Shown here one piece after another: positions 8,095-63,854 of a stretch of 64,000 bases of DNA; position 1 is the first letter of the stretch; each line of letters begins with the position of its first letter. A program made the position numbers and the translations under genes. This DNA comes from Candidatus Purcelliella pentastirinorum (GTDB lineage: Bacteria > Pseudomonadota > Gammaproteobacteria > Enterobacterales > Enterobacteriaceae): positions 62,001-126,000 of the forward strand of contig NZ_CP110496.1 in NCBI RefSeq assembly GCF_028748785.1. The letters are read 5' to 3'. The notes under the pieces are model-generated. The model was not told the DNA's origin. It ran no database searches and saw only the letters and a list, made by a program, of their open reading frames with translations.

Positions 8095-8157
8095 GTATAT
8101 TATGTATTTTATTAATTTAATGTAATATTTAAAGGATTTTTTTGTTTTTTGATATTT

Positions 8158-8898
8158 ATGAAAAATTTTTCTAAGTTTTTAAAAAAATTTTCAAATTTAT
8201 TACCTTCTGGGTTTAAACCTAAATTTATCACGGGTAGTGATTTATTAAGATGGCATCACGAGCAAGGTATTTTATATTCTGCTTCTATTACTAGAGATAA
8301 TAAAGCAACTAAAATACAGAAAATGTTTAACAGATCAGGAATACGTGAATTATATATAAATTGTTCTTTTAATAATTATCAAATTGAACATGAAGGACAT
8401 AAAAAAGTATTACATGCAGCACATAGATATGCTAAAGAATTTGATGATAATGTAGCTAGTTTTGTTTTTTTAGGTAATCCCGGTACCGGTAAGAATCATT
8501 TAGCAGCTGCAATTTGTAATTATTTAATTTTACGAAATAAGAGCGTATTAATAGTTACTGTAGCCGATTTAATGTCAAGTATGAAATCTACTTTTAAAGT
8601 TTATAGTGATTTAAGTGAAGAGTATTTATTAAGAAATTTTAGTACTGTAGATTTATTAATTATTGATGAAATAGGTGTTCAAATTCAGTCTAGATATGAA
8701 AAAATTGTTATAAATCAAATTGTTGATAGACGTTCTTCATCTAAAAAATCTACTGGTATGTTATCTAATTTGAATTATTTAAAATTAAGGACTTTATTAG
8801 GTAAAAGAGTTATTGATCGTATGTGTTTGGGTAAAGGATTGTGGTTAAATTTTAATTGGGGTAGTTACAGAAAAAAGGTAAATGTTAATGAATGTTAA
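8158..8898 (+). CDS. dnaC: DNA replication protein DnaC (helicase loader)
   Basis: AAA+ loader that delivers DnaB helicase to the origin. It has 246 residues from the ATG at 8158 (E. coli 245) and is strikingly similar to E. coli DnaC throughout: FKTGEELL-like start, NRSGIR, NCSFNNY, Walker A GNPGTGKNH, Walker B LLIIDEIG, INQIVDRRSSSKK. dnaT, its usual partner gene, is not beside it. It converges with nth, 15 bases away. Retention of DnaC matters because DnaA domain I has been lost. Confidence 0.95.
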   Translation: MKNFSKFLKKFSNLLPSGFKPKFITGSDLLRWHHEQGILYSASITRDNKATKIQKMFNRSGIRELYINCSFNNYQIEHEGHKKVLHAAHRYAKEFDDNVASFVFLGNPGTGKNHLAAAICNYLILRNKSVLIVTVADLMSSMKSTFKVYSDLSEEYLLRNFSTVDLLIIDEIGVQIQSRYEKIVINQIVDRRSSSKKSTGMLSNLNYLKLRTLLGKRVIDRMCLGKGLWLNFNWGSYRKKVNVNEC

Positions 8899-8913: not shown

Positions 8914-9548
8914 TTAAAAATAATTTTTGTTTTTGTATTTACATAATTTATTTATTTCACATGAATTGCATAATGGTTTTCTAGCTTTGCATATGTAACG
9001 TCCATGTAGTACTAACCAGTTGTGTATATTTTTTTTAAATTTTTTTGGAATAATTTTATTTAATTTTTTTTCTATTTTAATTGTTGTATTTCCTGTAGCT
9101 ATTTTAGTTCTATTACATATTCTAAATACATGAGTATCAACAGCTATTGTATTTTTATTGTATAATATATTTAGAATAATGTTTGAAGATTTTCTTCCTA
9201 TTCCAGGTAATTTTTCTAATTCTTTTCTATTATTTGGTATTTTATTTTTGTGTTTATTTATTATTATTTTACATATTTTTATTATATATTTTGTTTTATT
9301 ATTAAATAATCCTAAGAATTTTATTTGTTTTTTTAATTTTTTTTTCCCTAGTTTTAGTATTTTTTTTGGTGTATTTGCTGTATGCCATAATTTTTTTGTG
9401 ATTTGATTTACTTTTATATCTTTTGATTTTGCAGATAATATTAATGCAATTAATAGTTCGAATGGTGTTTTATAGTTTAATTCTGTTTTAGGTGTAGGAT
9501 TTTTTTTTTTAAAATTTTTATTATTTCGTTTATTTTTTTATTATTCAT
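8914..9548 (-). CDS. nth: Endonuclease III, single frameshift in an A11 run
   Basis: Base-excision repair glycosylase/AP lyase. The ATG at 9548 starts MNNKKINEIIKILKKK, then the frame breaks in an 11-base A run (9500-9510). The next frame continues NPTPKTELNYKTPFELL and runs without another stop to 8914. It includes the HhH motif LPGIGRK (catalytic Lys), VDTHVFR (catalytic Asp) and the four Fe-S cysteines (CKARKPLCNSCEINKLC). Adding one A gives exactly 211 residues, the E. coli length. With all catalytic residues kept, transcriptional slippage could restore it; otherwise it is a very recent pseudogene. Confidence 0.9.
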
Positions 9549-34495: not shown

Positions 34496-36880
34496 ATGTT
34501 TATAGATAATAAAAAAATAGTTTTTCAAAAAAAAAATTTCAATACTAAAATATTTTTTAGTATTAAATCTTTTTTTTATAAAATAATAAATAAATTAAAT
34601 TTTTTTTCTAAAATATTTTTTATTATTATAATCATTATTATTGTATATGGGTTATATTTAAATAACAAGATTATTAATCTTATCAATGGTAAAGTTTGGA
34701 AATTTCCTGTTTTTGTATATGGAAATATTGTAAATTTTAAATCTGGTATGTTTTACACAAAATGTGATTTAATTTCTATTTTAAATTTTCATCATTATTT
34801 AAAAGTTGATGTTTTGGATAATTCTGGTGAATATATTGTAAAAGAAAATAAAATTGAATTAATAAGAAGAGCTTTTAATTTTCCTGATTATAATGAAGGA
34901 GCACTTCGTGTTTGTTTTTATTTTGATAAAAATAAAATTAGAAGAATTATAAATACTAAAAATAATAAAAGCGTTGTTTTTTTTAGATTAGATCCTATAT
35001 TAGTTAATATTATACATACTTCAGATAAAGAAGAACATTTATTTTTACCATTATGTAATTTTTCTAGTAAAATGATAAATATTTTACTTTCCATTGAAGA
35101 TAAAAATTTTTTTTATCATATTGGTATCAATCCATTTTCAATGTGTAGAGCTCTTATTGCAAATGTTCATGCTGGTAAAATTATTCAGGGTGCTAGTACA
35201 TTAACACAACAATTAGCAAGGAATTTATTTTTAACTAACAAACGTTCTTTTTTACGTAAGTTTAATGAAATTTTTATTGCCATTATTATTGATGCTTTGT
35301 ATAGTAAAAACCGTATTTTAGAATTATATTTTAATGAAGTTTATTTTGGTCAATCTGGAATGTATGAAATTAGAGGTTTTCCTCTTGCAAGTATATATTA
35401 TTTTGGTAGACCAATTAATGAATTATCATTGGATCAGCAAGTATTATTAATATCTATGGTTAAAGGTGCTTCAATATATAATCCATGGAATCATCCTGAG
35501 TTAGTTTTAAGACGTCGTAATTTAATTTTAAGATTAATTTTCCATCAAAATATTATTTGTTATAAAGATTATTGTTTTTTTATTCATCGTCCTTTGGGTG
35601 TATTATCTAAAAGTAAATCTATAACTAAAAAACCTTTATTTATACAAATGTTATGTCGTGAATTAAAAATTAAATTAGGTAAAAACATTAATGATATACC
35701 TGGTAGTAGGATTTTTACTACTTTAGATTTAAGATCGCAATATTTTGCTGAAAAATCTGTGAAACTAAATATTTTATTTTTACGTAATAAATTAAAAATA
35801 AATAATTTAAAAGCTTTTATGATAATTGTAGATAAATTAACTGGAGAAGTACGTGGTATTGTTGGTAGTGCATCAACTAAAATTATTAATTCTAATAAAA
35901 TATTAGAATCTCGCAGATCTATTGGTTCGTTAGCTAAAATTATTATATATTTGTCTGTACTTGATAACCCTGATATTTATGGGTTTAATTCTTGGATTGA
36001 AGATAAACCCATTATTATTGGTTTATCTGATGTTAATGATTTTAAATTTAAAAATTATAATGAAAAGTTTATTAACAGAATGGTGTTACTTGATAAAATA
36101 ATTAATTTAATGAATGTGTCTTCAATCAATTCTAAAGTTAATTTAGATTTAAAAAATATTTTAAATACATTGTCTAAATTAGGCTTATACAAATATAAAT
36201 CTAAATATTCTATTTTTTCAAATTTAATTAATATGACTCCGGTTCAAGTAGCTCAAATTTTTCAATTAATTTCAAATGATGGTAATAAATCATGTTTATT
36301 TACTATTAAATTTATTATTTCGGAAAATGATAAAATTATTTATCATAATCATTATTCATTTAATCATGTAGTTAAATCTCAAGCTACATGGTTGACTTTA
36401 TATGGCATGCAACAAGTTGTTAAAAATGGAACTGCTAAATCTTTGAGCATATCGTATCCTCATGCTAATATAGCTGGCAAAAATAGTTTTAGTACTGGGT
36501 TAGTTGACAGCTGGTTTGTTGGTATAGATCATAGAGATGTTGTAGTTTCCTGGATAGGAATAGATAATAAAAAATCTTTATTTTTAAGTGATATTGATGC
36601 AATGCAAATGTATAGATGTTATTTGACTTATCGCCCACCTATACCTTTGGTTTTGTTTCCATTGTCTGATATTATCAAAGTAAATATTAATTATAATAAT
36701 AAAATAGTTTGTAAAAACAATATTTGGAAAAAAATACCAATTTGGGATTTTAATCATTCTTTTTCAAATTTTTGTAAAAATGATAGTAAGGAATTTATTA
36801 ATAATTCATTAGTTTTTGATAAAAATAAAAATAAGTCAATAATTTATTGGATAAAAAAATTTTTGGGTTTGTTTTTTTAA
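34496..36880 (+). CDS. mrcB: Penicillin-binding protein 1b, transpeptidase motifs degraded
   Basis: Bifunctional murein synthase in E. coli, here 794 residues (E. coli 844). A single membrane anchor lies at about residues 40-55. The glycosyltransferase domain is intact: EDKNFFYHIG (Glu201), GASTLTQQLARNLFL, and NEVYFGQSG. In the transpeptidase domain the nucleophile motif SLAK (Ser478) remains, but the SxN motif reads LMN (538-540) and KTGT reads KNSF (662-665). It should still polymerise lipid II but is unlikely to cross-link. The C-terminal tail is shortened. The neighbours dksA and erpA match E. coli order after deletion of intervening genes. Confidence 0.94.
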   Translation: MFIDNKKIVFQKKNFNTKIFFSIKSFFYKIINKLNFFSKIFFIIIIIIIVYGLYLNNKIINLINGKVWKFPVFVYGNIVNFKSGMFYTKCDLISILNFHHYLKVDVLDNSGEYIVKENKIELIRRAFNFPDYNEGALRVCFYFDKNKIRRIINTKNNKSVVFFRLDPILVNIIHTSDKEEHLFLPLCNFSSKMINILLSIEDKNFFYHIGINPFSMCRALIANVHAGKIIQGASTLTQQLARNLFLTNKRSFLRKFNEIFIAIIIDALYSKNRILELYFNEVYFGQSGMYEIRGFPLASIYYFGRPINELSLDQQVLLISMVKGASIYNPWNHPELVLRRRNLILRLIFHQNIICYKDYCFFIHRPLGVLSKSKSITKKPLFIQMLCRELKIKLGKNINDIPGSRIFTTLDLRSQYFAEKSVKLNILFLRNKLKINNLKAFMIIVDKLTGEVRGIVGSASTKIINSNKILESRRSIGSLAKIIIYLSVLDNPDIYGFNSWIEDKPIIIGLSDVNDFKFKNYNEKFINRMVLLDKIINLMNVSSINSKVNLDLKNILNTLSKLGLYKYKSKYSIFSNLINMTPVQVAQIFQLISNDGNKSCLFTIKFIISENDKIIYHNHYSFNHVVKSQATWLTLYGMQQVVKNGTAKSLSISYPHANIAGKNSFSTGLVDSWFVGIDHRDVVVSWIGIDNKKSLFLSDIDAMQMYRCYLTYRPPIPLVLFPLSDIIKVNINYNNKIVCKNNIWKKIPIWDFNHSFSNFCKNDSKEFINNSLVFDKNKNKSIIYWIKKFLGLFF

Positions 36881-50359: not shown

Positions 50360-51142
50360 ATGAATCCTATGCTTAATATAGCAATTAAAGCGATTAGATC
50401 TGCGGGTAATTTTTTGATACAAAAATATGTAAATTATACAAAATTAGATATTAATAATATAACTAAGAGTAGTTTAGCTATAGCCAATATTAACAGATCA
50501 ATGAAATTGATTATTATGCAAGTTATTCAAAAATATTATCCTAATCATATATTTATAAAAAATAAGTATAAGTTACATTTTACTAAAAGTAATAATACTA
50601 AATGGGTTATTAATTCTCTTGATGGCGTAGATAATTTTATTAGAAAATTTCCACATTTTTCTATTTCTATAGCAGCTATAGTAAATGGTAGATCTGTAAT
50701 ATCTTTGATATATGATCCAATTCGTAACGATTTATTTTCTGCAGTTCGTGGTAATGGAGCGCAGTTAAATAGTTTTAGAATTAGAAGCAATTCTATTTGT
50801 AAATTAGAAAATATTGTTTTAGCTTTATCTTTAAAATCAAAATTGAACAATGATATAATTTTATATAAAAAAGTATTAAATAAATTGATTAACAGTCATA
50901 TTGATTTTCGTTATACTGGATCTTCATCTTTGGATTTAGCATATCTAGCAGCTGGTAAAATCGATGGTTATTTACAAGTTGGTTTTAATTATTTTGATTT
51001 TATTTCTAATGAATTATTGTTAATAGAATCAGGTAATATCTTATCAGATTTTATTGGTAAAAGTGATTGTCTGTTATTTAATAATGTTATATGTGGCAAT
51101 CCTCGTTTATTAAAAGAGTTATTAATTTTGGTTAAAGAATAA
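50360..51142 (+). CDS. suhB: SuhB, inositol monophosphatase fold with eroded active site
   Basis: 260 residues (E. coli 267), beginning MNPMLNIAIKAIRSAGN like E. coli MHPMLNIAVRAARKAGN. YDPIRNDLFSAVRGNGAQLN and GSSSLDLAYLAAGKIDGYLQVG confirm the family. Of the metal-binding residues, E67 is Asn (IKNK for ITEE) and D84 is Asn (INSLDG for IDPLDG), while D87 and D212 remain; D44 is also Asn. Phosphatase activity is therefore doubtful. E. coli SuhB also joins the rRNA antitermination complex with NusA and RNAP, which could explain retention. It converges with glyA, abutting its stop. Confidence 0.92.
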   Translation: MNPMLNIAIKAIRSAGNFLIQKYVNYTKLDINNITKSSLAIANINRSMKLIIMQVIQKYYPNHIFIKNKYKLHFTKSNNTKWVINSLDGVDNFIRKFPHFSISIAAIVNGRSVISLIYDPIRNDLFSAVRGNGAQLNSFRIRSNSICKLENIVLALSLKSKLNNDIILYKKVLNKLINSHIDFRYTGSSSLDLAYLAAGKIDGYLQVGFNYFDFISNELLLIESGNILSDFIGKSDCLLFNNVICGNPRLLKELLILVKE

Positions 51143-53027: not shown

Positions 53028-53984
53028 ATGGAATATAGTGAAGATATAATTATAAATAAATTTAAACATAAAACTGTTTTTCTTGAAGAAGCCGTTGATA
53101 TGTTAAATATAAAACCTAATGGTATATATATAGATGCTACATTCGGTTGTGGTGGTCATTCTTATTTAATATTGTCTAAATTAAATAAATTTGGTAAATT
53201 ATATGTAATTGATCGTGATCCATTTTCTATATTTTTAGCAAAAAAAATAATAGATTCTAGATTGTTTGTGATTCATGATAGATTTTCCAAATTAATAAAT
53301 TATGTAAAAAAATATTCTATATTTGGTAAAATAGATGGTATTTTATTTGATTTAGGCATGTCTTCTTTACAATTAAATGAACCTAATAGAGGTTTTTCTT
53401 TTATGCGTGATGGTTTTTTAGATATGAGAATGGATTATTTTTCTTCTATGTCGGCATTTAAATTTTTATTTTTTAGTGATTCATTTAAAATAACTCATAT
53501 TTTAAAAAAATATGGTGAAGAGCGTTATGCTAAATTAATAGCTAATAAAATAGTTGAATATAATAAAATTAGTATTTTAAAAAAAACTAGTGATCTTTCT
53601 AAATTAATTTCTTCTGTGGTATTTAATAAAACTTATAAACACCCATCAACTCGTACTTTTCAAGCTATTAGAATATATATTAATAATGAGTTGTATGAAA
53701 TAACTGAAATATTTAAATATTTATTATCAATTCTTAATATAGGAGGTCGTATTTGTGTTATAAGTTTTCATTCTTTAGAAGATCGTATAGTGAAAAATTT
53801 TATGAATAAATATGGTAAAAGATTTTATTTCCCTTACAAATTACCTATTTTAGATTCTCAAATAAGAGATTTTAATATTATGAGATTAAAGGTATTCAAA
53901 AAAATATTTCCAACTAAGCGTACTATTTTATTAAATTCTAGATCCCGTAGTGCTATATTAAGATCAGCTGAAAAAATAATTTAG
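53028..53984 (+). CDS. rsmH: 16S rRNA (cytosine1402-N4) methyltransferase RsmH
   Basis: Methylates C1402 in the ribosomal P site. It has 318 residues (E. coli 313). Conserved blocks: VFLEEAVDMLNIKPNGIYIDATFGCGGHS, DRDPFS, DGILFDLGMSSLQLN, HPSTRTFQAIRIYIN and SFHSLEDRIVKNF. It opens the remaining division and cell-wall cluster; ftsL and ftsI, which follow it in E. coli, are absent (60-base gap to murE). Confidence 0.96.
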   Translation: MEYSEDIIINKFKHKTVFLEEAVDMLNIKPNGIYIDATFGCGGHSYLILSKLNKFGKLYVIDRDPFSIFLAKKIIDSRLFVIHDRFSKLINYVKKYSIFGKIDGILFDLGMSSLQLNEPNRGFSFMRDGFLDMRMDYFSSMSAFKFLFFSDSFKITHILKKYGEERYAKLIANKIVEYNKISILKKTSDLSKLISSVVFNKTYKHPSTRTFQAIRIYINNELYEITEIFKYLLSILNIGGRICVISFHSLEDRIVKNFMNKYGKRFYFPYKLPILDSQIRDFNIMRLKVFKKIFPTKRTILLNSRSRSAILRSAEKII

Positions 53985-54043
53985 TTTTTTTTATATTTAT
54001 TGAACAAAATATATACAATTTTATAATTTATGAGTTTTAATTT

Positions 54044-55528
54044 ATGTTGTATTTAGATTATTTATTATTACCCTGGTTATTCAATGTGCCTAAGATAAAA
54101 ATATTTAATATATCTTTGAATAGTAAATTTATTATTAAAGGAGATCTTTTTATTGCTAAGCCTGGATATAATATTGATGGTAGAAATTATATTATTGATG
54201 CATTAATTAGAGGGGCAAGTGCTGTATTAGTTGAGACAAATAATTTGATTTTAGATCTTAATATAACATATTTTAATGATGTTCCTATAATTTATTTTTT
54301 AAATTTGTCTAAAGAATTATCTTTTATTTCTCAACGTTTTTATCCTATATCTAATAAGTTAAAATTAATAGCAATAACAGGTACTAATGGTAAAAGCACT
54401 ATTTCTCATTTAATTACTCAATGGGTTTTTTTATTAGGTAATACGGGGGCAGTTATGGGTACCATTGGTAATGGTATATATGGTGATTTATGTCCTTCAA
54501 TTAATACTACAGAATCAGCTGTTGAAGTTTGTAAAATGTTGTATCATTTTTCTAAAAATAAAGTTGATATTGCTTCGATAGAGGTATCTTCTCATGGTCT
54601 CATTCAAAATCGTGTTTTATCTTTACCATTTACTGCTGCTATATTTAGTAATATTACTATGGATCATCTAGACTATCATATAAATATGGAAAGATATATA
54701 AAGGCTAAATGGTTATTATTTTCTAAACATGATATTAATATTAGTATTATTAATATAGATGATAATATTGGTAAACGGTGGGTAAAGAAAATTTCTAGGG
54801 TAGTTTGTGTTACTACTAATCGTAATTTACACTTTAGTAAAGATGAATATTGGTTAAAATTAGATAGTGCAAAGTATAATTTTAATAATACTATTATTCA
54901 TTTTGATTCTTTTTGGGGTAAAGGAACTTTTAGTACTAAATTAATTGGTGAATTTAATGTTATTAATATTTTGTTAGCTTTGGCTACACTTTTGTGGATG
55001 GGATATTCATTAACTGATTTAATTTCTACTGCTAAGTTTTTAAAACCTATTATAGGCAGAATGGAAATGTTTCATTCGATTAATAAGCCTACTGTGATTA
55101 TTGATTACGCTCATACTCCTGATGCATTAAAAAAATCTTTGATATCTGCTAGATTATATTGTAAAAATAAACTATGGTGTATTTTTGGTTGTGGAGGTAA
55201 TCGTGATAAATCTAAAAGACCTATTATGGGTAGTATTGCGGAACAATTATCTGATTATGTAGTTATTACTGTGGATAATTCACGTTATGAAAATCCTATT
55301 TATATAATTAATGATATTAAATCTGGTTTTACTAATAAAATCAATAAGAAATATTTTTTTAATCGGTTGCAGGCTATATTCAGTACTATATTATATGTGG
55401 ATAATGAAGATTTAGTTTTAATAGCTGGAAAAGGACATGAAAATTACCAAATTATTGGAAATTATTATATTGATTATTCTGATCATTCAGTAGTAAAAGC
55501 AGCATTGAAAAAAAGATATTCATCTTAA
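54044..55528 (+). CDS. murE: UDP-MurNAc-L-Ala-D-Glu:meso-diaminopimelate ligase
   Basis: Adds the third stem-peptide residue. It has 494 residues (E. coli 495). ATP loop GTNGKST, IEVSSHGLIQNRV, DYAHTPDAL, and GKGHENYQI are conserved. The substrate-selecting DNPR motif of mDAP enzymes reads DNSR, keeping the Arg. The next E. coli gene, murF, is absent. Confidence 0.95.
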   Translation: MLYLDYLLLPWLFNVPKIKIFNISLNSKFIIKGDLFIAKPGYNIDGRNYIIDALIRGASAVLVETNNLILDLNITYFNDVPIIYFLNLSKELSFISQRFYPISNKLKLIAITGTNGKSTISHLITQWVFLLGNTGAVMGTIGNGIYGDLCPSINTTESAVEVCKMLYHFSKNKVDIASIEVSSHGLIQNRVLSLPFTAAIFSNITMDHLDYHINMERYIKAKWLLFSKHDINISIINIDDNIGKRWVKKISRVVCVTTNRNLHFSKDEYWLKLDSAKYNFNNTIIHFDSFWGKGTFSTKLIGEFNVINILLALATLLWMGYSLTDLISTAKFLKPIIGRMEMFHSINKPTVIIDYAHTPDALKKSLISARLYCKNKLWCIFGCGGNRDKSKRPIMGSIAEQLSDYVVITVDNSRYENPIYIINDIKSGFTNKINKKYFFNRLQAIFSTILYVDNEDLVLIAGKGHENYQIIGNYYIDYSDHSVVKAALKKRYSS

Positions 55529-55901
55529 TAAATTTTGATTACTTTAATTTTATTCAATAGTTTTATTAATTTTTAATAATTTGATTTAATAATATTTATT
55601 TGAATAATATAATTATATTATTTTTTTAATAGTTAAAGTTTGTAAATATTTATTTTCAAAAATTTATAATAATAAATTATTTTAAAATAATTTATTTATT
55701 ATTTATGTAATGTATATTTTGAATTAAAATTAAATTGTAATATTTTACAGATATAATGTTAATGTTATGTAGCTAATTTTCTTATTCTAAATATATAATT
55801 TTATATATATAATATAGTAAAAATTATATTTTGATAATTGTGTAATAATTTACAATTTATATATAAAAAAAATGATATTTATTTTTAAGAGGTGATGATG
55901 T
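55529..55901. other. Intergenic region at the site of missing murF
   Basis: About 370 A+T-rich bases where E. coli has murF (about 1.36 kb). I compared the frames after the murE stop with the MurF N-terminus and found no convincing match, so any relic is gone. AGAGGTG at 55888-55894 is the likely ribosome-binding site of mraY. Confidence 0.55.
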
Positions 55902-56984
55902 ATGTTTTTTTGTTTATTTGACATATTTCATAATATAAATTTTTATTTATTTACTTTTTTTTCTTATAGAATTAGAATATTTGCAAGTTTTTTTACCTCA
56001 TTCTTAATTTCTTTGTTTTTAGGTTTTTATTTAATAAATTTATTAAATAAATTTAATATTTATCAAATTATTAGAATAAATGGTCCAAAAACACATTATT
56101 TAAAAAATAAAACTCCTACAATGGGCGGTATAGTAATTATAATTTCGATTTTTTTGTCTGTTTTATTTTGGTCGTATTCTTATAATCATTATATAAAATA
56201 TATTTTTATTATATTATTTAGTTATGGATTAATTGGATTAATTGATGATTATTTTAAGTTAATTAATAAAAATTCTAATGGAATAAGTGTCAAGTATAAG
56301 TACTTTTTTCAGTCTATAATAGCATTTATTTTATCTTTTTTGATATATTATCGTTGTAAAAATGTAATATTTTCTAAATTTATATTTAGTTATTTTAAAT
56401 TTTCAGAAATACAATTAGATATATTCTATATAATATTATTTTATTTTGTTATAACTGGAACTAGTAATGCTGTTAATTTAACAGATGGATTAGATGGTTT
56501 GGTTGTTATACCAATTATTTTAGTTTTTTGTGGTTTTTTGTTAATATCTTATTTTTATAGTGATATTTATATTTCAAGTTATTTTAATATTCCTTATTTG
56601 TGTAATGCTAGGGAATTGGTTATTTTTTGTTCATCAGTAATAGGTTCTTGTTTAGGATTTTTATGGTTTAATTTTTATCCTGCTAAGATATTTATGGGTG
56701 ATGTGGGTTCATTAGCTTTAGGTGGTTCATTAAGTGTTACTTCTATTTTGTTACATCAAGAGTTTTTGCTTTTTATTATGGGTGGTTTATTTGTTTTAGA
56801 AACTTTATCTGTTATTTTACAAGTATTTGTGTTTAGATTTTTTGGAAAAAAAATCTTTCTTATGGCACCTATTCATCATCATTTTGAATTGAAAGGTTAT
56901 TTTGAACCTAATATAGTTATTCGTTTTTGGATTATTTCATTGATTTTTGTATTATTTGGATTATTTATTTTTGGAATTCATTAG
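55902..56984 (+). CDS. mraY: Phospho-MurNAc-pentapeptide translocase MraY
   Basis: Integral membrane enzyme that makes lipid I on undecaprenyl phosphate. It has 360 residues, the E. coli length, with about ten membrane segments. TPTMGGI, GLIDDYFKL, NLTDGLDGL, FMGDVGSLALGG and PIHHHFELKG hold the catalytic Asp and His residues. In the absence of MurF it might act on a tripeptide precursor. Confidence 0.96.
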   Translation: MFFCLFDIFHNINFYLFTFFSYRIRIFASFFTSFLISLFLGFYLINLLNKFNIYQIIRINGPKTHYLKNKTPTMGGIVIIISIFLSVLFWSYSYNHYIKYIFIILFSYGLIGLIDDYFKLINKNSNGISVKYKYFFQSIIAFILSFLIYYRCKNVIFSKFIFSYFKFSEIQLDIFYIILFYFVITGTSNAVNLTDGLDGLVVIPIILVFCGFLLISYFYSDIYISSYFNIPYLCNARELVIFCSSVIGSCLGFLWFNFYPAKIFMGDVGSLALGGSLSVTSILLHQEFLLFIMGGLFVLETLSVILQVFVFRFFGKKIFLMAPIHHHFELKGYFEPNIVIRFWIISLIFVLFGLFIFGIH

Positions 56985-56987
56985 TAT

Positions 56988-58307
56988 ATGTACAATTATT
57001 ATAATAAGAAAATAGTTGTTATTGGTTTGGGAAAAACAGGTTTATCTTGTATAAATTTTTTTTTAAGACGTGATATTATACCAATGGTATTGGATACCAG
57101 AAATTCCCCTTCTAGATTAAATAAATTACCTAATTTTGTAAAATATAAATTAGGTCCATTAAGATGTGAGGATATTATTTTTTTTGATTTAATTGTTGTT
57201 AGTCCGGGTTTATCTTTAAATGATCCTGCATTATTGTATGCTAAAAAAATAGGTATAGAAATTATTGGAGATATTGAACTATTTTGTCGTGAATTACAAT
57301 TTATTTCTGTTGTAGCTATTACTGGATCTAATGGTAAAAGTACTGTTTCTAGTTTGTTATATAATATTGCTAATGCTTCTGGTGTTAAAGTAATTTTGGC
57401 GGGAAATATTGGTACTCCTGTATTGGATACTTTAAAAGATTATGCTCAATTATATATTTTAGAATTATCTAGTTTTCAATTAGAAACTGTATTTAGTTTA
57501 TCATCTGAAGTTTCTACGATATTAAATGTTTGTTATGATCATATAGATCGTTATCTTAGTGGTATTATGGAATATCGTTCATTTAAGTTAAGAATATATA
57601 ATAATTCTAAAATATGTCTTATTAATGTTGATGATATATTTACATTTCCATTTAATAAAATTTATAAAAAATGTATTAGTTTTGGTTCTTATACAGGTGA
57701 TTATTGCATGATAAAATATCGTGGTTCTTTATGGCTTAGCGTATATGGTAAACGCGTTTTAAATACATCTAAAATAAAATTATTTGGTTTTCATAATTAT
57801 ATTAATTGTCTAGTTGTATTAGCTATTTCAGATATAATGTCTTTTACTAGAAAAATTATTTTAAGAATATTTTCTTTGTTTAAAGGATTAAAACATCGTT
57901 TTCAATTAGTACATAAACGAAATAATATAACATGGATAAATGATTCTAAATCCACAAATTTATCTAGTACTATTGCTGCATTAATTAATTTCAAGAATAA
58001 TATTGGTTTTGTGTGGTTGTTTTTAGGTGGTATTTTAAAAAGTACTTTTTTATCTTCATTAGATAGTTATATATATAAATATAAAATAAAATTATGTTGT
58101 TTTGGGAAGGATGGTATGTTTATTTCTTCTTTATACCCTAATATTTCTATTTATAGAAATACTGTAGAAGAATTAATTATTAATATAATGCCTATAGTTA
58201 AATCTGGTGATGTTATTTTATTTTCACCTGCTTGTTCTAGTTTTGATCAATTTAAAAATTTTAAAGAGAGAGGTAATTACTTTTTAAGTATTGCAAATAA
58301 ATATTAA
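56988..58307 (+). CDS. murD: UDP-MurNAc-L-alanine:D-glutamate ligase
   Basis: Adds D-Glu to UDP-MurNAc-L-Ala. It has 439 residues (E. coli 438). VVIGLGKTGLSC, VVSPGLSLNDP, ATP loop GSNGKST, LELSSFQLE and FSPACSSFDQFKNFKERG are conserved. It starts 3 bases after mraY. ftsW, next in E. coli, is missing; the gap to murG is about 120 bases. Confidence 0.95.
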   Translation: MYNYYNKKIVVIGLGKTGLSCINFFLRRDIIPMVLDTRNSPSRLNKLPNFVKYKLGPLRCEDIIFFDLIVVSPGLSLNDPALLYAKKIGIEIIGDIELFCRELQFISVVAITGSNGKSTVSSLLYNIANASGVKVILAGNIGTPVLDTLKDYAQLYILELSSFQLETVFSLSSEVSTILNVCYDHIDRYLSGIMEYRSFKLRIYNNSKICLINVDDIFTFPFNKIYKKCISFGSYTGDYCMIKYRGSLWLSVYGKRVLNTSKIKLFGFHNYINCLVVLAISDIMSFTRKIILRIFSLFKGLKHRFQLVHKRNNITWINDSKSTNLSSTIAALINFKNNIGFVWLFLGGILKSTFLSSLDSYIYKYKIKLCCFGKDGMFISSLYPNISIYRNTVEELIINIMPIVKSGDVILFSPACSSFDQFKNFKERGNYFLSIANKY

Positions 58308-58426
58308 TTTTATAATTTTATTTATATATATATTTTTTATTGAAAATATGTTTTAAATTATATAGTATTATTTATTAATAAAATAAAATTTATTTTAATT
58401 TAAAATTATATTTTTTTGGAGTTTAG

Positions 58427-59483
58427 ATGATTAAAAAAAAAAATAATAATCACGGGTGGAGGTACTGGTGGTCATATTTTCCCGGGTATTGTAATAGCAA
58501 AAGCTCTTATTAAACATGGGTGGGATGTTCTTTGGATGGGTACTAAAGATAGGATGGAATCTTTTTTAGTACCAAGATATAAAATAAATATTGATTTTAT
58601 ATCTATTAATGGATTAAGAGGTAAAGGATTAAAATCTTATTTATTATTTTGTTTTAATTTATTTCGTAGTTTATATAAATTTAAAAAAATTATAAAAATC
58701 TGGAAACCAGATATTATTTTTGGTTTGGGTAGTTATATTTCAGCTCCCGGAGGGATAATATCATGGATATCAAGAATACCCTTAATTATTTATGAACAAA
58801 ATGTGATAGCAGGTATTACTAATAAATTATTAGCTAAAATAGCTAATATATCTATTCAAGCATTTCCAGGTGCTATATTAAATTCTATTGTAGTTGGTAA
58901 TCCTATAAGGAATGAAATTATCTCTATTTTACCTCCTGAGTTAAGATTAAATAATCGTTCTGGACCAATAAGAATACTTGTCATAGGAGGTAGTCAGGGT
59001 GCTAAAATATTTAATAATATTTTTCCGGATGTATTAAAATTATTAAAGGATAATATATTTTTATGGCATCAGGTTGGTCATAATGCATTTAATGAAATAG
59101 ATGCTATTTATAAAAAAATAGGAATTATAAAATATAGAATAAATGATTTTATTCATAATATAGCTAAAGCGTATGCATGGGCGGATTTAGTTGTTTGTCA
59201 ATCTGGTGCTATTACGGTTAGTGAGTTAATAGCGGTTGGTTTGCCTTCAATTTTGGTTCCTTTTGAACATTCAGATTGTCAACAATATTTTAATGCTTTA
59301 TTATTAGAAAAAGTTGGTGCTGGAATTATTTGTAAACAAGAAAAATTTAACGTTAATACGTTTATTTCCATTTTTAAATCATTAAATCGTGCAATCTTAT
59401 TTAAGATGTCTGTTAAAGCTAAGTCTCTTTATTTGCCAGGGTCTTTAGAACGAATATTAAAGATTATTAATAGTTGTGTTTGA
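58427..59483 (+). CDS. murG: MurG glycosyltransferase, frameshifted in an A11 run near its start
   Basis: Transfers GlcNAc to lipid I, giving lipid II. From the ATG at 58427 the frame reads MIKKK and then breaks in an 11-base A run (58433-58443). Removing one A continues with the substrate loop TGGGTGGHIFPG (58452-58487), and the frame then runs unbroken to 59483, including GLGSYISAPGG, EQNVIAGITNK, GGSQGAKIFN and CQSGAITVSELIAVGLPS. One base fewer gives 351 residues (E. coli 355). Otherwise the first in-frame Met is at 58536 and the essential Gly-rich loop is lost. Since neighbouring mur genes are intact, slippage rescue is likely. Confidence 0.92.
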
Positions 59484-59535
59484 TTAATTTATAGTTTATT
59501 TTCATTAATATTTTATATTTTAATTATATATAGTA

Positions 59536-60978
59536 ATGAATTTTTTAACTTATTTTAAAAATAATTTTTCTGTTTTTAGTTCTATTAATATACCTAAGAG
59601 TATGTATTTTATTGGTATAGGTGGATCCGGTATGGTAGGATTAGCTAAAATTTTGTTAGATATGGGTTTTTTTGTTAGTGGTTCAGATATTGAAATTAAT
59701 AGTAATGTTGATTATTTGTTATCTTTAGGTGTTTTAGTATATCATACACATGATTCTAATAACATTAAAAATGTTGATGTTGTTATTTATTCTAGTGCCA
59801 TTGAAAATGATAATGTAGAAGTTCTATCAGCTCTTGAATTAAATATACCAGTTATTTCTAGAGCAGAAATGTTATCTGAATTGATTCGTTTTAGTTATGG
59901 TATTGCTGTTGCTGGTACTCATGGTAAAACCACCACTTCTGCTTTGGTTTTTGATATTTATTTTAATAACGATAGAAATCCTTCTATTGTTAATGGTGGT
60001 TATATTAAATCTATTGGTTCTTATTCGTTTTTAGGTTCTAGTAATTGTTTTATTTTTGAAGCTGATGAAAGTGATTCTTCTTTTTTGTGTTTTCATCCTA
60101 TGGTAATTATTATAACGAATATTGAACCCGAACACTTAAGTAATTATGATGGAAGTTTTAAAAAATTACAAAATGCTTTTATTAAATTTTTACATAATTT
60201 GCCATTTTATGGCAAAGCTATTTTATGTATAGATGATTTAGTTATTCGTGATCTAATACCTAATATTTGTTGTAAATTTATTACTTATGGTTTTAGTCAT
60301 GATGCTGATGTTCATATATACAACTATAAACAAATTGGTTTAAAGAGCTCTTTTAGAATATTATATAAGGATAAATATGATATTAAAATTTTATTAAATA
60401 TGCCTGGCAAACATAATGCTTTAAATGCTGCAGCAGCATTAACAATTGCCAAGGAAGATAATATTGATGATAAACATATTTTAAAAGCATTAAAAAAATA
60501 TAAAGGTACAAAAAGACGCTTTGAATATATTGGTGAATTTTCATTATCTATAATTAATGGTAGAATCGGTAATTTTATTATTGTTGATGATTATGGTCAT
60601 CACCCCACTGAAATTTATATGTCTATATTAACTGCAAGAAAATGTTGGACAAATAGAAGAATAATTATGGTTTTTCAGCCTAATCGTTTTACTCGTACCC
60701 GTGATTTGTATAGTGAATTCATAAATATATTATCTAATGTAGATGTTTTATTTATTTCTAATATTTATTCTTCTAATGAATTACCTATTTTGGGTATAAA
60801 TAGTACTAAATTATGTAGTGATATTTTTATACTTGGGAAATTAAGTCCTATTTTTGTGAAAGATTTTGATTGTTTGGTGGATAAATTAAAAATTATTCTT
60901 ACTTGTAATGATGTATTGATAATACAAGGAGCTGGTGATATAACCAATGTTATTAAAAAATTATTAAAAATAATATAA
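59536..60978 (+). CDS. murC: UDP-N-acetylmuramate:L-alanine ligase
   Basis: First ligase of the stem peptide. It has 480 residues (E. coli 491). FIGIGGSGMVGLA, ATP loop GTHGKTTTSA, EADESDSSF, and DDYGHHPTEI are conserved. Follows murG as in E. coli; ddlB, ftsQ, ftsA, ftsZ and lpxC, which would come next, are absent from this locus. Confidence 0.96.
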   Translation: MNFLTYFKNNFSVFSSINIPKSMYFIGIGGSGMVGLAKILLDMGFFVSGSDIEINSNVDYLLSLGVLVYHTHDSNNIKNVDVVIYSSAIENDNVEVLSALELNIPVISRAEMLSELIRFSYGIAVAGTHGKTTTSALVFDIYFNNDRNPSIVNGGYIKSIGSYSFLGSSNCFIFEADESDSSFLCFHPMVIIITNIEPEHLSNYDGSFKKLQNAFIKFLHNLPFYGKAILCIDDLVIRDLIPNICCKFITYGFSHDADVHIYNYKQIGLKSSFRILYKDKYDIKILLNMPGKHNALNAAAALTIAKEDNIDDKHILKALKKYKGTKRRFEYIGEFSLSIINGRIGNFIIVDDYGHHPTEIYMSILTARKCWTNRRIIMVFQPNRFTRTRDLYSEFINILSNVDVLFISNIYSSNELPILGINSTKLCSDIFILGKLSPIFVKDFDCLVDKLKIILTCNDVLIIQGAGDITNVIKKLLKII

Positions 60979-61271
60979 TAATATTAAATTACTAAACAAA
61001 ATTTTAATAATACTTGTTAAGTGAATTATTATTTGTAATTTAATCTAATAAAATATTTTTATTTTTTAGTTATTCCATATATTTTATTAATATATAGTAT
61101 AGATTTTAATAGAATATATATTTTTAAATTGTTTAACATTAAACTAAAAATTGTAATTTAATAAAATATTTTTTTTTTTATATTTTAAATAATTAATCAA
61201 AATTATAAGTTTTTAAAAATCTTAAATATTTTTGAAGTTAACTTAAATTTATTATTTATGAGAATTATATT
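60979..61271. other. Intergenic region at the site of missing ddlB-ftsQAZ-lpxC
   Basis: About 290 bases of A+T-rich DNA replacing roughly 5 kb of E. coli cluster between murC and secA. No residual protein similarity is visible to me. It should contain the secA promoter. Confidence 0.55.
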
Positions 61272-63854
61272 ATGTTTATAAAATTTTTAACTAAATTATT
61301 TGGTAGTCGTAATGATCGTGTTTTAAAACGTATGTATAGAATTGTGAATGTAATTAATTCTTTAGAAAATGATTTTTCTAAATTATCAGATGATTTATTA
61401 AAAAATAAAACTATTGAATTTCGTAATAGATTAAAATGTGGTGAATTATTAAATACATTACTTCCTGAAGCATTTGCTGTTGTTAGGGAAGCTAGTAAAA
61501 GAATATTTGGTATGCGTCATTTTGATGTTCAACTTATTGGAGGAATTGTATTAAATAATCGTTGTGTTGCTGAGATGAGAACAGGTGAAGGTAAAACATT
61601 GACTGCAACTTTACCAGCTTATTTGAATTCTTTAAATGGATATGGTGTACATATAGTTACAGTAAACGATTACTTAGCAAAAAGAGATGCGGAAAATAAT
61701 CGTGAATTGTTTACATTTCTTGGATTAACAGTTGGGATAAATGTTTCTAGCACTTCTATTGTAGAAAAAAGAATAGCATATAATGCTGATATAACCTATG
61801 GTACTAATAATGAATATGTATTTGATTACCTTAGAGATAATATGGTTTTTAATAAAAATGATCGTGTACAACGAAAATTATATTATGCTATTGTAGATGA
61901 AGTTGATTCTATCTTTATTGATGAAGCTCGTACTCCGTTGATTATTTCAGGTCCTACAGAAAATAATTCTAATTTATATTTTGAAATAAATAAGATTGTT
62001 CCTAATTTAATATGTCAAAATAAAAAAGAATCTGATGTATATAATGGGTTTATTAATTTTTCAATTGATGAAAAATCTAAACAGGTTTATTTAACTGAAA
62101 AAGGTATGGATCTATTAGAAAATTTATTAGTTGAAAATGGTATTATGAGTGGTGAAGAATCCTTGTATTCTTCTTCTAATATAATATTAATGCATCATAT
62201 ATTAGCAGCATTACGAGCTCATACTTTATTTATTCGTAATGTTGATTACATTATTAAAAATAATAAGGTTATTATTGTTGACGAACATACTGGTAGAATT
62301 ATGCCTGGTAGAAGATGGTCGGATGGCTTACACCAGGCTATAGAAGCCAAAGAAAATGTTAATATTCAAAATGAAAATCAAACTTTAGCGTCTATAACTT
62401 TTCAGAATTATTTTAGGATGTATAAAAAAATATCTGGTATGACAGGTACTGCATATACTGAGTCTTTTGAGTTAAATGCTATTTATAATCTTGATACAGT
62501 AATTATTCCTACTAATAAACCTATGATTAGAAAGGATTTTTCTGATTTAATATATATTACTGAAAGTGAAAAGATAAATGCTATTATATTAGATATTCTT
62601 AATTGTATTAAAAAAAAGCAACCTGTTTTAGTTGGTACTATTTCTATAGAAAAATCCGAACTTATTTCTAATGAATTAAAGAAATTAGGTATACGACATA
62701 GTGTTTTAAACGCTAAATTTAATGCTCAGGAAGCCGAAATTATTGCAAAAGCTGGTGAACCAGGTGTAGTAACTATTGCCACTAATATGGCAGGTAGAGG
62801 TACTGATATTGTTTTAGGAGGTAGTAATATTAATATTAGTAAATTATTTAATGTTATTGATTCCAATGAATTATATAAAAATAAATTAATTTGGAAAAAA
62901 AAACATGATTTTGTTATATCCGTAGGTGGTTTACATATAATTGGTACTGAACGTCATGAATCTAGAAGAATAGACAATCAATTAAGAGGCAGATCTGGTC
63001 GCCAGGGTGATCCTGGTTCTTCTCGTTTTTATTTATCCATGGATGATTCTTTAATGCGTATTTTTACTCCTTCTAAAATTATTAATATGATGCGTAAATT
63101 AGGTATTAAATTTGGAGAAGCGATTGAACATCCATGGGTTACAAAAGCTATAGCAAAAGCTCAATATAAAGTAGAAAATCGTAATTTTGATATTAGAAAA
63201 CAATTATTAGAATATGATGATGTTGCTAATGATCAGCGTAAAGTAATTTATATGCAACGTAATTTTCTTTTAGAATCTGTTAATATTAGTAGAATAATTA
63301 AAGTTGTTCGCAATGATGTGTTTAATAAAATTATCAATACTTATGTTTCTAAAAATTTATCTGAACTATTTTGTAGTTTAGTTCGATTTAAAGATATTCT
63401 TAAACAAGAATTTAATTTAGAGTTATCATTATATAAACTAGATACAGATGTAATAAAAAATAAAGAATTTGATATATATGGATATATATTGCGAGATATA
63501 ATTAGTTTCCATGATAATCAAGAGAAATTAATTGATCGTTTGTTATTACAAAATATAGAAAAAAATGTTATGTTGCAAATTTTGGATTTATTTTGGAAGG
63601 AACATTTAGCTTCTATGGATTATTTACGTCAGGGCATTCATTTACGAGGTTATGCACAAAAGGATCCTAAACAAGAATATAAACGTGAATCTTTTGTTAT
63701 GTTTATAAATATGTTAGAATCTATTAAGTATGAAGTTATTAGTATTATCACTAAGATATACGTTAATTTTTCCCAGGGTTTATTTTTTATTGATATAAAT
63801 AATATGAGTACAATAAATTATAGTTTATTATTTAATAATATAAACGAAAAATGA
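61272..63854 (+). CDS. secA: Preprotein translocase ATPase SecA (no C-terminal zinc tail)
   Basis: Motor of Sec export. It has 860 residues (E. coli 901). Walker [79 protein letters not shown] and the helical scaffold are intact. The C-terminal Cys/His zinc motif that binds SecB and phospholipid is missing; the protein ends in a short Asn/Ser-rich tail. SecB-targeted delivery is therefore unlikely. Confidence 0.97.

What the first reader, a model, noticed from the sequence alone, without database searches (positions are those of the whole stretch)
53028..61271. Wall cluster without murF, ddlB, ftsI, ftsW: a possible uncross-linked tripeptide wall
Seen: the locus runs rsmH-murE-mraY-murD-murG-murC-secA, with ftsL, ftsI, murF, ftsW, ddlB, ftsQAZ and lpxC all missing, and no fragments in the gaps. 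Known: MurF adds D-Ala-D-Ala, the substrate of transpeptidases. Inference: losing D-Ala-D-Ala addition and the PBP1b transpeptidase motifs together is internally consistent and suggests lipid II tripeptide polymerised into uncross-linked glycan, an unusual minimal cell wall, perhaps completed or modified by host enzymes.
Basis: partly seen in the sequence, partly recalled or inferred. Interest (0 to 1): 0.85.

Follow-up and report, generated by a model that had tools for sequence, protein, structure and literature searches.

The report
Cell wall that cannot cross-link
A shrunken insect symbiont keeps the genes to build and polymerise cell-wall units but seems to have lost the genes for linking the strands together, so it may carry a loose, unlinked wall; this is a prediction from genes, not yet seen in the cell.

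Summary
The cluster is real. rsmH-murE-mraY-murD-murG-murC-secA stands in the same order in a second species of the genus. In the single 483,447-base contig the only Mur ligases found are MurC, MurD and MurE. Searches found no Ddl, FtsW/RodA, YkuD L,D-transpeptidase, DacA, MltG, FtsZ, FtsA or MreB. The only transpeptidase-family protein is PBP1b; its polymerase domain is intact and strongly conserved (dN/dS 0.11), but its transpeptidase domain has lost two of three active-site motifs in both species. MurA, MurB, MurI, UppS, MurJ, an SLT lytic transglycosylase and Pal are kept; 13 wall genes tested show purifying selection. 'Uncross-linked' is well supported. 'Tripeptide' is weaker: a DadX-type alanine racemase is kept, and GlmM and DapA/B/D/F are missing, so part of the pathway needs outside supply; host-supplied MurF and Ddl (as in mealybugs) cannot be excluded. 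MurG has a poly-A frameshift in both species. Identity is probably Candidatus Purcelliella (inferred). New variant of a known kind. Probability of an uncross-linked polymer about 0.75; of tripeptide stems about 0.5.

The parts
53028..53984 (+). rsmH (MraW), 16S rRNA methyltransferase, first gene of the remaining dcw cluster
   Evidence: Pfam PF01795 315.9 bits; dN/dS 0.186 against G001
54044..55528 (+). murE, meso-diaminopimelate-adding type; P-loop GTNGKST kept; DNPR motif reads DNSR in both species
   Evidence: NF001123 632.1 bits, cut-off 586; dN/dS 0.198
55529..55901 (.). 373-base gap where murF stands in E. coli; no recognisable murF remnant
   Evidence: 501 bases in G001
55902..56984 (+). 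mraY, lipid I synthase, four motifs searched for are present
   Evidence: TIGR00445 367.4 bits, cut-off 192; motifs; dN/dS 0.340
56988..58307 (+). murD, D-Glu-adding ligase
   Evidence: TIGR01087 348.1 bits, cut-off 212; dN/dS 0.290
58427..59483 (+). murG; ATG at 58427 separated from the GGTGG reading frame by a run of 11 A (12 A in G001): frameshifted in both species, perhaps read by transcriptional slippage
   Evidence: TIGR01133 265.8 bits, cut-off 250 on 58536-59480; dN/dS 0.103
59536..60978 (+). murC, L-Ala-adding ligase
   Evidence: TIGR01082 484.9 bits, cut-off 335; dN/dS 0.223
60979..61271 (.). 293-base gap where ddlB-ftsQAZ-lpxC stand in E. coli; no remnant found
61272..63854 (+). secA (flank)
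34496..36880 (+). mrcB (PBP1b): glycosyltransferase domain conserved; transpeptidase domain with SLAK kept but SMN->LMN and KTG->KNS
   Evidence: TIGR02071 757 bits, cut-off 718; Pfam Transgly 170.7, Transpeptidase 42.1 bits; alignment; dN/dS GT 0.106, TP 0.297

Best explanation
The symbiont keeps a minimal peptidoglycan line that makes and polymerises lipid II but cannot cross-link it. MurA-MurB-MurC-MurD (with MurI) and MurE make UDP-MurNAc-tripeptide, using diaminopimelate from outside. MraY and MurG make the lipid-linked disaccharide, MurJ flips it, and the polymerase domain of PBP1b joins units into strands. No recognised working D,D- or L,D-transpeptidase remains to join strands. An SLT lytic transglycosylase trims the glycan, and Pal may hold the outer membrane to it through diaminopimelate. 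Shown: gene content, motifs, purifying selection in two species, and loss of two transpeptidase motifs. Inferred: that the polymer exists, that its stems stop at diaminopimelate, where diaminopimelate comes from, and the tethering role.
For: Three Mur ligase matches only, each accounted for by murC/D/E. The sole Ddl-profile hit is AccC. PBP1b is the only transpeptidase-family hit; no SEDS (19); no YkuD (76). E. coli segments gave no MurF, Ddl, LdtD/E, MltG, DacA, FtsZ, FtsA or MreB in G000 or G001; the same query found all of these in the 4.6-Mb control G015 (Ddl at 39%), and MurF, Ddl, FtsZ, FtsA and MreB, but not LdtD/E, MltG or DacA, in the 600-kb control G008. No AmiC or MepM (found in G008 and G015) and no Slt or MltA (found in G015 only). 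Kept and constrained: murE, mraY, murD, murG, murC, murA, murB, murI, murJ, dN/dS 0.10-0.34; lytic transglycosylase 0.21; Pal 0.22. GT 0.106 versus TP 0.297; GT reached TP in 0.4% of 500 bootstrap pairs. MurE is of the diaminopimelate type.
Against: A DadX-type alanine racemase is kept with dN/dS 0.28: a D-Ala sink, or another role, is implied. GlmM (91) and DapA/B/D/F (46) were not found, so some steps are filled from outside and MurF/Ddl might be too; UppP was not found either, nor in control G008. The TP domain is not neutral (dN/dS interval 0.19-0.46) and keeps SLAK, so it retains some role. Pal and the lytic transglycosylase score under the curated cut-offs of their NCBIfam models, though over those of Pfam. 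Peptide-acting enzymes such as PBP4, MepS and AmiD, and monofunctional MtgA, were not searched genome-wide. No host sequence could be searched. No peptidoglycan has been shown in this organism. Only two species.
Confidence: 0.55

Rival explanations
1. The host, or another symbiont, supplies MurF and Ddl (as reported for mealybugs), so lipid II carries a pentapeptide made with D-Ala from the symbiont's DadX; the polymer may still be uncross-linked, or be cross-linked by an imported enzyme.
For: DadX kept and conserved; other pathway holes (GlmM, DAP) already need outside supply; mealybug host genes murA-F and ddlB are reported (PMC5664097, passages; see also PMC7154730, passages). For a cixiid host one paper names gene transfer to the host as a possibility still to be investigated, in the context of nutrient pathways (PMC12691624, passage).
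Against: I saw no report of such genes for planthopper hosts in the passages read or the listings of searches, which is a thin basis. The symbiont has lost the tested partners that would use D-Ala-D-Ala (class B PBPs, DacA, Ldts).
Confidence: 0.27
2. The pathway is a decaying relic on the way to a wall-less state.
For: Many steps are missing; MurG is frameshifted; 25 of 392 family genomes have no Mur ligase match at all; 11 of the 13 wall genes have dN/dS above the median of 28 ORF pairs.
Against: 13 wall genes have open frames (murG apart from its poly-A run) with dN/dS 0.10-0.34, far below 1 and near the 0.19 median of 28 ORF pairs; MurG is the most constrained of them (0.103); P-loop and MraY motifs present.
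Confidence: 0.1
3. Lipid II itself, not a polymer, is the end product.
For: No SEDS and no bifunctional synthase with all its motifs. Wolbachia is described as making lipid II while lacking a typical glycosyltransferase (PMC5543032, passages; PMC7154730, passage).
Against: The PBP1b polymerase domain is the most constrained part of that protein and its blocks are conserved; MurJ and a lytic transglycosylase are kept.
Confidence: 0.05
4. The missing genes exist but were missed, or lie on an unassembled replicon.
For: Completeness 96.7%, not 100%; fast-evolving AT-rich genes can escape searches; a plasmid could lie outside the record.
Against: Single contig; the same absences in a second species (99% complete); the profile and segment searches found several of the same families in equally small or slightly larger relatives.
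Confidence: 0.03

Closest known systems
Peptidoglycan-intermediate (PGi) bacteria, Atwal et al. 2021 (PMC8406291; passages read)
   Same: Host-associated bacteria with a reduced wall and most lipid II genes.
   Different: PGi lack class A PBP and keep SEDS plus class B PBP; here the reverse: class A PBP only, with two transpeptidase motifs lost. [quoted passage not shown]
Aphidini Buchnera lacking two to three of murC, murE, murF (PMC9116674; passages and part 1 of the discussion read)
   Same: An insect symbiont that can lack murF and still keeps other wall genes; walls were labelled with a D-Ala analogue there.
   Different: There ddlB, ftsI and mepM are kept and ligases lost; here murC, murD and murE are kept, and Ddl and class B PBPs were not found.
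Mealybug-Moranella mosaic peptidoglycan (passages in PMC5664097 and PMC7154730; the primary paper was not read)
   Same: A symbiont pathway with holes; the host may fill them.
   Different: No host genes are known to me here; the holes here include the cross-linking enzymes.
Wolbachia lipid II pathway (PMC5543032; passages)
   Same: Lipid II synthesis kept without a demonstrated wall.
   Different: Wolbachia encodes all lipid II enzymes but no typical glycosyltransferase or lytic transglycosylase; here MurF and Ddl are missing, and both a polymerase domain and a lytic transglycosylase are kept.
G016, another reduced member of the family in this collection
   Same: Only one transpeptidase-family match, PBP1b, with all three transpeptidase motifs changed, and no SEDS.
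   Different: Five Mur ligase matches, a Ddl hit and one YkuD protein, so L,D cross-links remain possible.

Membership tests
Peptidoglycan-intermediate (PGi) wall | No class A PBP | tested here: not met
   PBP1b present, TIGR02071 757 bits
Peptidoglycan-intermediate (PGi) wall | At least one SEDS and one class B PBP | tested here: not met
   PF01098 no hit; PF00905 only PBP1b
Peptidoglycan-intermediate (PGi) wall | Most lipid II genes | tested here: inconclusive
   murA, B, C, D, E, mraY, murG, murJ, murI present; MurF, Ddl, GlmM not found
Bifunctional class A PBP (PBP1b) | Glycosyltransferase domain with its motifs | tested here: met
   Transgly 170.7 bits; motif blocks conserved
Bifunctional class A PBP (PBP1b) | Transpeptidase motifs SxxK, SxN, KTG | tested here: not met
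   SLAK kept; LMN and KNS in place of SMN and KTG, both species
Host-complemented (mosaic) peptidoglycan | Host genes of bacterial origin for the missing steps | not testable with these tools
   no host genome or transcriptome held
Host-complemented (mosaic) peptidoglycan | Symbiont pathway with gaps | tested here: met
   MurF, Ddl, GlmM, DapA/B/D/F not found
Candidatus Purcelliella (organism) | Single ~480-481 kb chromosome near 21.7% GC | tested here: met
   483,447 and 479,855 bases; window about 22% GC from the table; published 481,066-481,188 bases, 21.7% in one (PMC12505427, PMC12691624, passages)
Candidatus Purcelliella (organism) | Sequence match to a named Purcelliella record | not tested
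   no named record of it was retrieved; genomes here are unnamed

The most novel reading that the evidence does not exclude
The symbiont makes polymerised but wholly uncross-linked diaminopimelate-tripeptide glycan, which bears no load and serves as an anchor for the outer membrane through Pal, in a cell without FtsZ, MreB, FtsW/RodA or any working transpeptidase, with diaminopimelate taken from a neighbouring symbiont's lysine pathway.
Probability: 0.35. Interest if true: 0.87.

Novelty: new variant of a known kind. Interest (0 to 1): 0.72.

Why it matters
Ordinary peptidoglycan needs both polymerisation and cross-linking. A lineage that holds the polymerisation half under selection while losing the cross-linkers would separate the two functions by natural experiment and show what a wall is for when it bears no load (membrane tether, division aid, or a signal to the host). 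It gives a concrete test: muropeptides of one symbiont.

Tried and rejected
Missed murF in the gap: rejected; no remnant in G000 or G001, whereas G007, another 500-kb relative, holds three short MurF-like pieces in three frames in its murE-mraY gap. G007 was considered a parallel case but keeps MreB, a class B-type PBP beside a split RodA (PBP2 by position) and MurJ, so it is not the same system. Weak MurF rows in the window are murE, murD and murC themselves. The DapE-like hit is ArgE. The PF07478 hit is AccC. LdcA was in the probe but was found in none of the 5 genomes, control G015 included, so it is not used. Naming the organism through genome contigs failed: the 80 loci kept are at 41-50% identity, and the tool says its own genome's records may be left out. 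Literature searches that might touch wall genes of this symbiont or its host gave nothing specific in what I saw; only open-licence papers are held and no supplementary file was read. The first Purcelliella genome paper (Bennett and Mao 2018) and Gossett et al. 2023 were not read, so their authors may have commented on the wall.
Full report
What was checked. The window is bases 62001-126000 of a single 483,447-base contig, AT-rich, about 22% GC over the window (mean of the 16 rows). tblastn with 43 E. coli K-12 proteins finds the cluster's wall genes, rsmH and mrcB; it finds no ftsI, murF, ftsW, ddlB, ftsQ, ftsA, ftsZ or lpxC, and for ftsL only a 24-residue row at 9200. Three gaps hold no recognisable remnants.

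Correction: murG. The mechanical ORF starts at 58536 and would cut off the GGTGG motif. The sequence shows a GGAG, an ATG at 58427 and, after ATGATT, 11 A; the MurG frame then runs in a different phase. In the second species the same place has 12 A, again out of phase. MurG is nevertheless the most constrained of the wall genes tested (dN/dS 0.103). [quoted passage not shown] Slippage here is inferred.

Whole-genome test. Mur_ligase_M (PF08245) gives three matches in the genome; the cluster's murE, murD and murC each match that model. In the 40 genomes, G000, G001 and G007 have three, G011 none, the other 36 five to eight. In a wider draw of 392 genomes of the family, exactly three matches occur in G000, G001, G007 and G338, the last in 190 contigs (counted by eye). 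The Ddl profile hits only AccC (named by TIGR00514, 675 bits). The transpeptidase profile hits only PBP1b, with 44.7 bits in G000 and 22.1 in G001. FtsW/RodA and YkuD profiles hit nothing in either. Concatenated E. coli segments found no MurF, Ddl, LdtD, LdtE, MltG, DacA, FtsZ, FtsA or MreB in G000 or G001; the only hits of the MreB segment there are weak matches in frames of 646 and 645 aa, the one in G000 being DnaK by its sequence. In the 600-kb control G008 the query found MurF, Ddl, Alr, FtsZ, FtsA, MreB and MurJ but not LdtD/E, MltG or DacA; in the 4.6-Mb control G015 it found all eleven segment families, LdtD/E included. ftsL, ftsQ and lpxC were tested only in the window.

What is kept. 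MurJ, an alanine racemase, MurA, MurB, MurI, UppS, GlmS, a weak GlmU-like match beside GlmS, BamA, Pal and an EmtA/MltC-type lytic transglycosylase. Pal scores 118.7 bits with TIGR02802 (cut-off 125) and the transglycosylase 157-162 bits with the EmtA and MltC models (cut-offs 233 and 375), that is under those cut-offs, but both pass their Pfam domain cut-offs. Not found: GlmM and its whole family (PF02878), DapA, DapB, DapD, DapF and UppP (UppP was not found in control G008 either), TolB, AmiC, MepM, LpxA, LpxB, LpxD (all found in G008 and G015), Slt and MltA (found in G015 only). So one glycan-cutting enzyme is kept (Slt, MltA and MltG are gone), and none of the tested enzymes that act on peptides (AmiC, MepM, DacA, LdtD/E) is kept. 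PBP4, MepS, AmiD and others were not tested. This pattern is what an uncross-linked polymer would leave.

PBP1b. Alignment of E. coli, G000 and seven relatives shows the glycosyltransferase blocks conserved. In the transpeptidase domain SLAK is kept in G000 and G001, SMN reads LMN and KTG reads KNS in both; E. coli, G006, G008, G014, G015 and G019 keep SxxK, SxN and KTG. G016 has lost all three, but has a Ddl hit, five Mur ligase matches and a YkuD protein. Between G000 and G001 the glycosyltransferase domain has dN/dS 0.106 (bootstrap 95% interval 0.045-0.201) and the transpeptidase domain 0.297 (0.193-0.455); in 0.4% of 500 bootstrap pairs the first reached the second. The transpeptidase domain is thus less constrained but not neutral; UB2H (0.605) and the N-terminal part (0.532) are less constrained still. 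That motif loss abolishes catalysis is established knowledge of PBPs, not tested here.

Selection. G001 (479,855 bases, same genus) has the same cluster, with spacers mraY-murD 3, murG-murC 52 and murC-secA 300 bases (G000: 3, 52, 293). dN/dS (Nei-Gojobori, one pair of species): murE 0.198, mraY 0.340, murD 0.290, murG 0.103, murC 0.223, mrcB 0.271, racemase 0.282, murA 0.266, murB 0.239, murI 0.224, murJ 0.132, lytic transglycosylase 0.210, Pal 0.220: 13 genes, all well under 1; rsmH 0.186. The median of 28 reciprocal-best ORF pairs, kept after filters on length and identity and including wall genes and some antisense frames, is 0.192; murG and murJ lie below it, the other 11 above. The wall genes are thus constrained about as ordinary genes or slightly less. 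dS is 0.13-0.31, not saturated. P-loops of MurE, MurD and MurC and four MraY motifs are present. This speaks against a relic.

The third residue. MurE belongs to the diaminopimelate-adding type (NF001123, 632 bits, cut-off 586); the DNPR motif reads DNSR in both species, keeping the arginine (that this arginine recognises diaminopimelate is recalled). Pal's OmpA-like domain aligns with solved peptidoglycan-associated lipoproteins and with E. coli Pal, keeping the GHxDxRG and RAN stretches (that these bind diaminopimelate is recalled). DapA/B/D/F were not found, so diaminopimelate should come from outside. If the organism is Purcelliella, its partner Vidania encodes the complete lysine pathway (PMC12505427, passage), and in one study Purcelliella bacteriocytes are always covered by the Vidania bacteriome (PMC10073718, passage); another study shows Vidania and Purcelliella filling different bacteriomes in Pentastiridius leporinus (PMC12691624, passages), which is less favourable. 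This cross-feeding is inference.

Against the tripeptide. The alanine racemase (G000:C1:14783-15850) scores best with DadX (466.9 bits, under that model's cut-off of 600) and over the cut-off of the general Alr model (341.5 against 168). It keeps its KSNAYGHG and GYSDGYPR stretches in both species (that they hold the catalytic residues is recalled). If no D-Ala enters the wall, its retention is unexplained. Either something outside supplies Ddl and MurF, as reported for mealybug hosts, or DadX serves another role, such as making L-Ala. I therefore put 'uncross-linked' at about 0.75 and 'tripeptide' at about 0.5; the joint best explanation is given 0.55 with that spread in mind.

Identity. No tool named the organism. 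Size and GC fit Candidatus Purcelliella of cixiid planthoppers (481,066-481,188 bases; 21.7% GC; PMC12505427 and PMC12691624, passages). The word peptidoglycan does not occur in the main text of PMC12505427, PMC12691624 or PMC13202766, and in PMC10073718 and PMC8406288 only in the reference list. I read passages, not whole texts, and not the first genome paper, so I do not claim that the gene losses are unreported.

Relation to known systems. It is close to the mirror image of peptidoglycan-intermediate bacteria, which drop class A PBP and keep SEDS/class B PBP (PMC8406291, passages). It shares murF loss with Aphidini Buchnera, whose authors saw labelled walls in spite of the losses, in cells that keep ddlB and ftsI (PMC9116674). 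That precedent warns that gene lists can under-predict walls. Verdict: a new variant of a known kind, of high interest, awaiting chemistry.

Noticed in passing
window 58427-58443 and the same place in L167 (G001): The murG start codon is followed by a poly-A run of 11 (G000) or 12 (G001), both out of phase with the conserved frame; possible transcriptional slippage.
   Followed up: yes
G000:C1:14783-15850 (L169:5784-6851): A DadX-type alanine racemase is kept although Ddl and MurF were not found.
   Followed up: partly
G000 and G001, whole genome: GlmS and a weak GlmU-like match are kept but no member of the GlmM (PGM_PMM_I) family was found, leaving a hole in UDP-GlcNAc synthesis.
   Followed up: partly
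window 50360-51142: SuhB keeps its length but has changed E. coli stretches ITEES->IKNKY and WVIDPLDGT->WVINSLDGV, places where metal ligands are recalled to lie; perhaps kept only as a Nus factor.
   Followed up: partly
G007:C1, murE-mraY gap (L174:9322-10615): Another 500-kb relative holds MurF-like pieces in three frames, a probable murF pseudogene, while keeping MreB and a class B-type PBP beside a split RodA.
   Followed up: partly
G016:C1:527000-533000 (L176): A second lineage with PBP1b as sole transpeptidase-family match and all three transpeptidase motifs changed, but with Ddl and YkuD hits kept.
   Followed up: partly
G000:C1:468057-469211 (L188:1558-2712): An argE (acetylornithine deacetylase, 573.6 bits) and, beside it, a VTT-domain membrane protein (L188:702-1418); the latter family is recalled to include undecaprenyl-phosphate transporters.
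   Followed up: no
window 8149-8898: A DnaC-type helicase loader (NF005931, 382.9 bits, cut-off 357) is kept in this small genome.
   Followed up: no
G000:C1:128071-128574 (L173:2071-2574): pal is kept although no TolB was found in the genome.
   Followed up: partly
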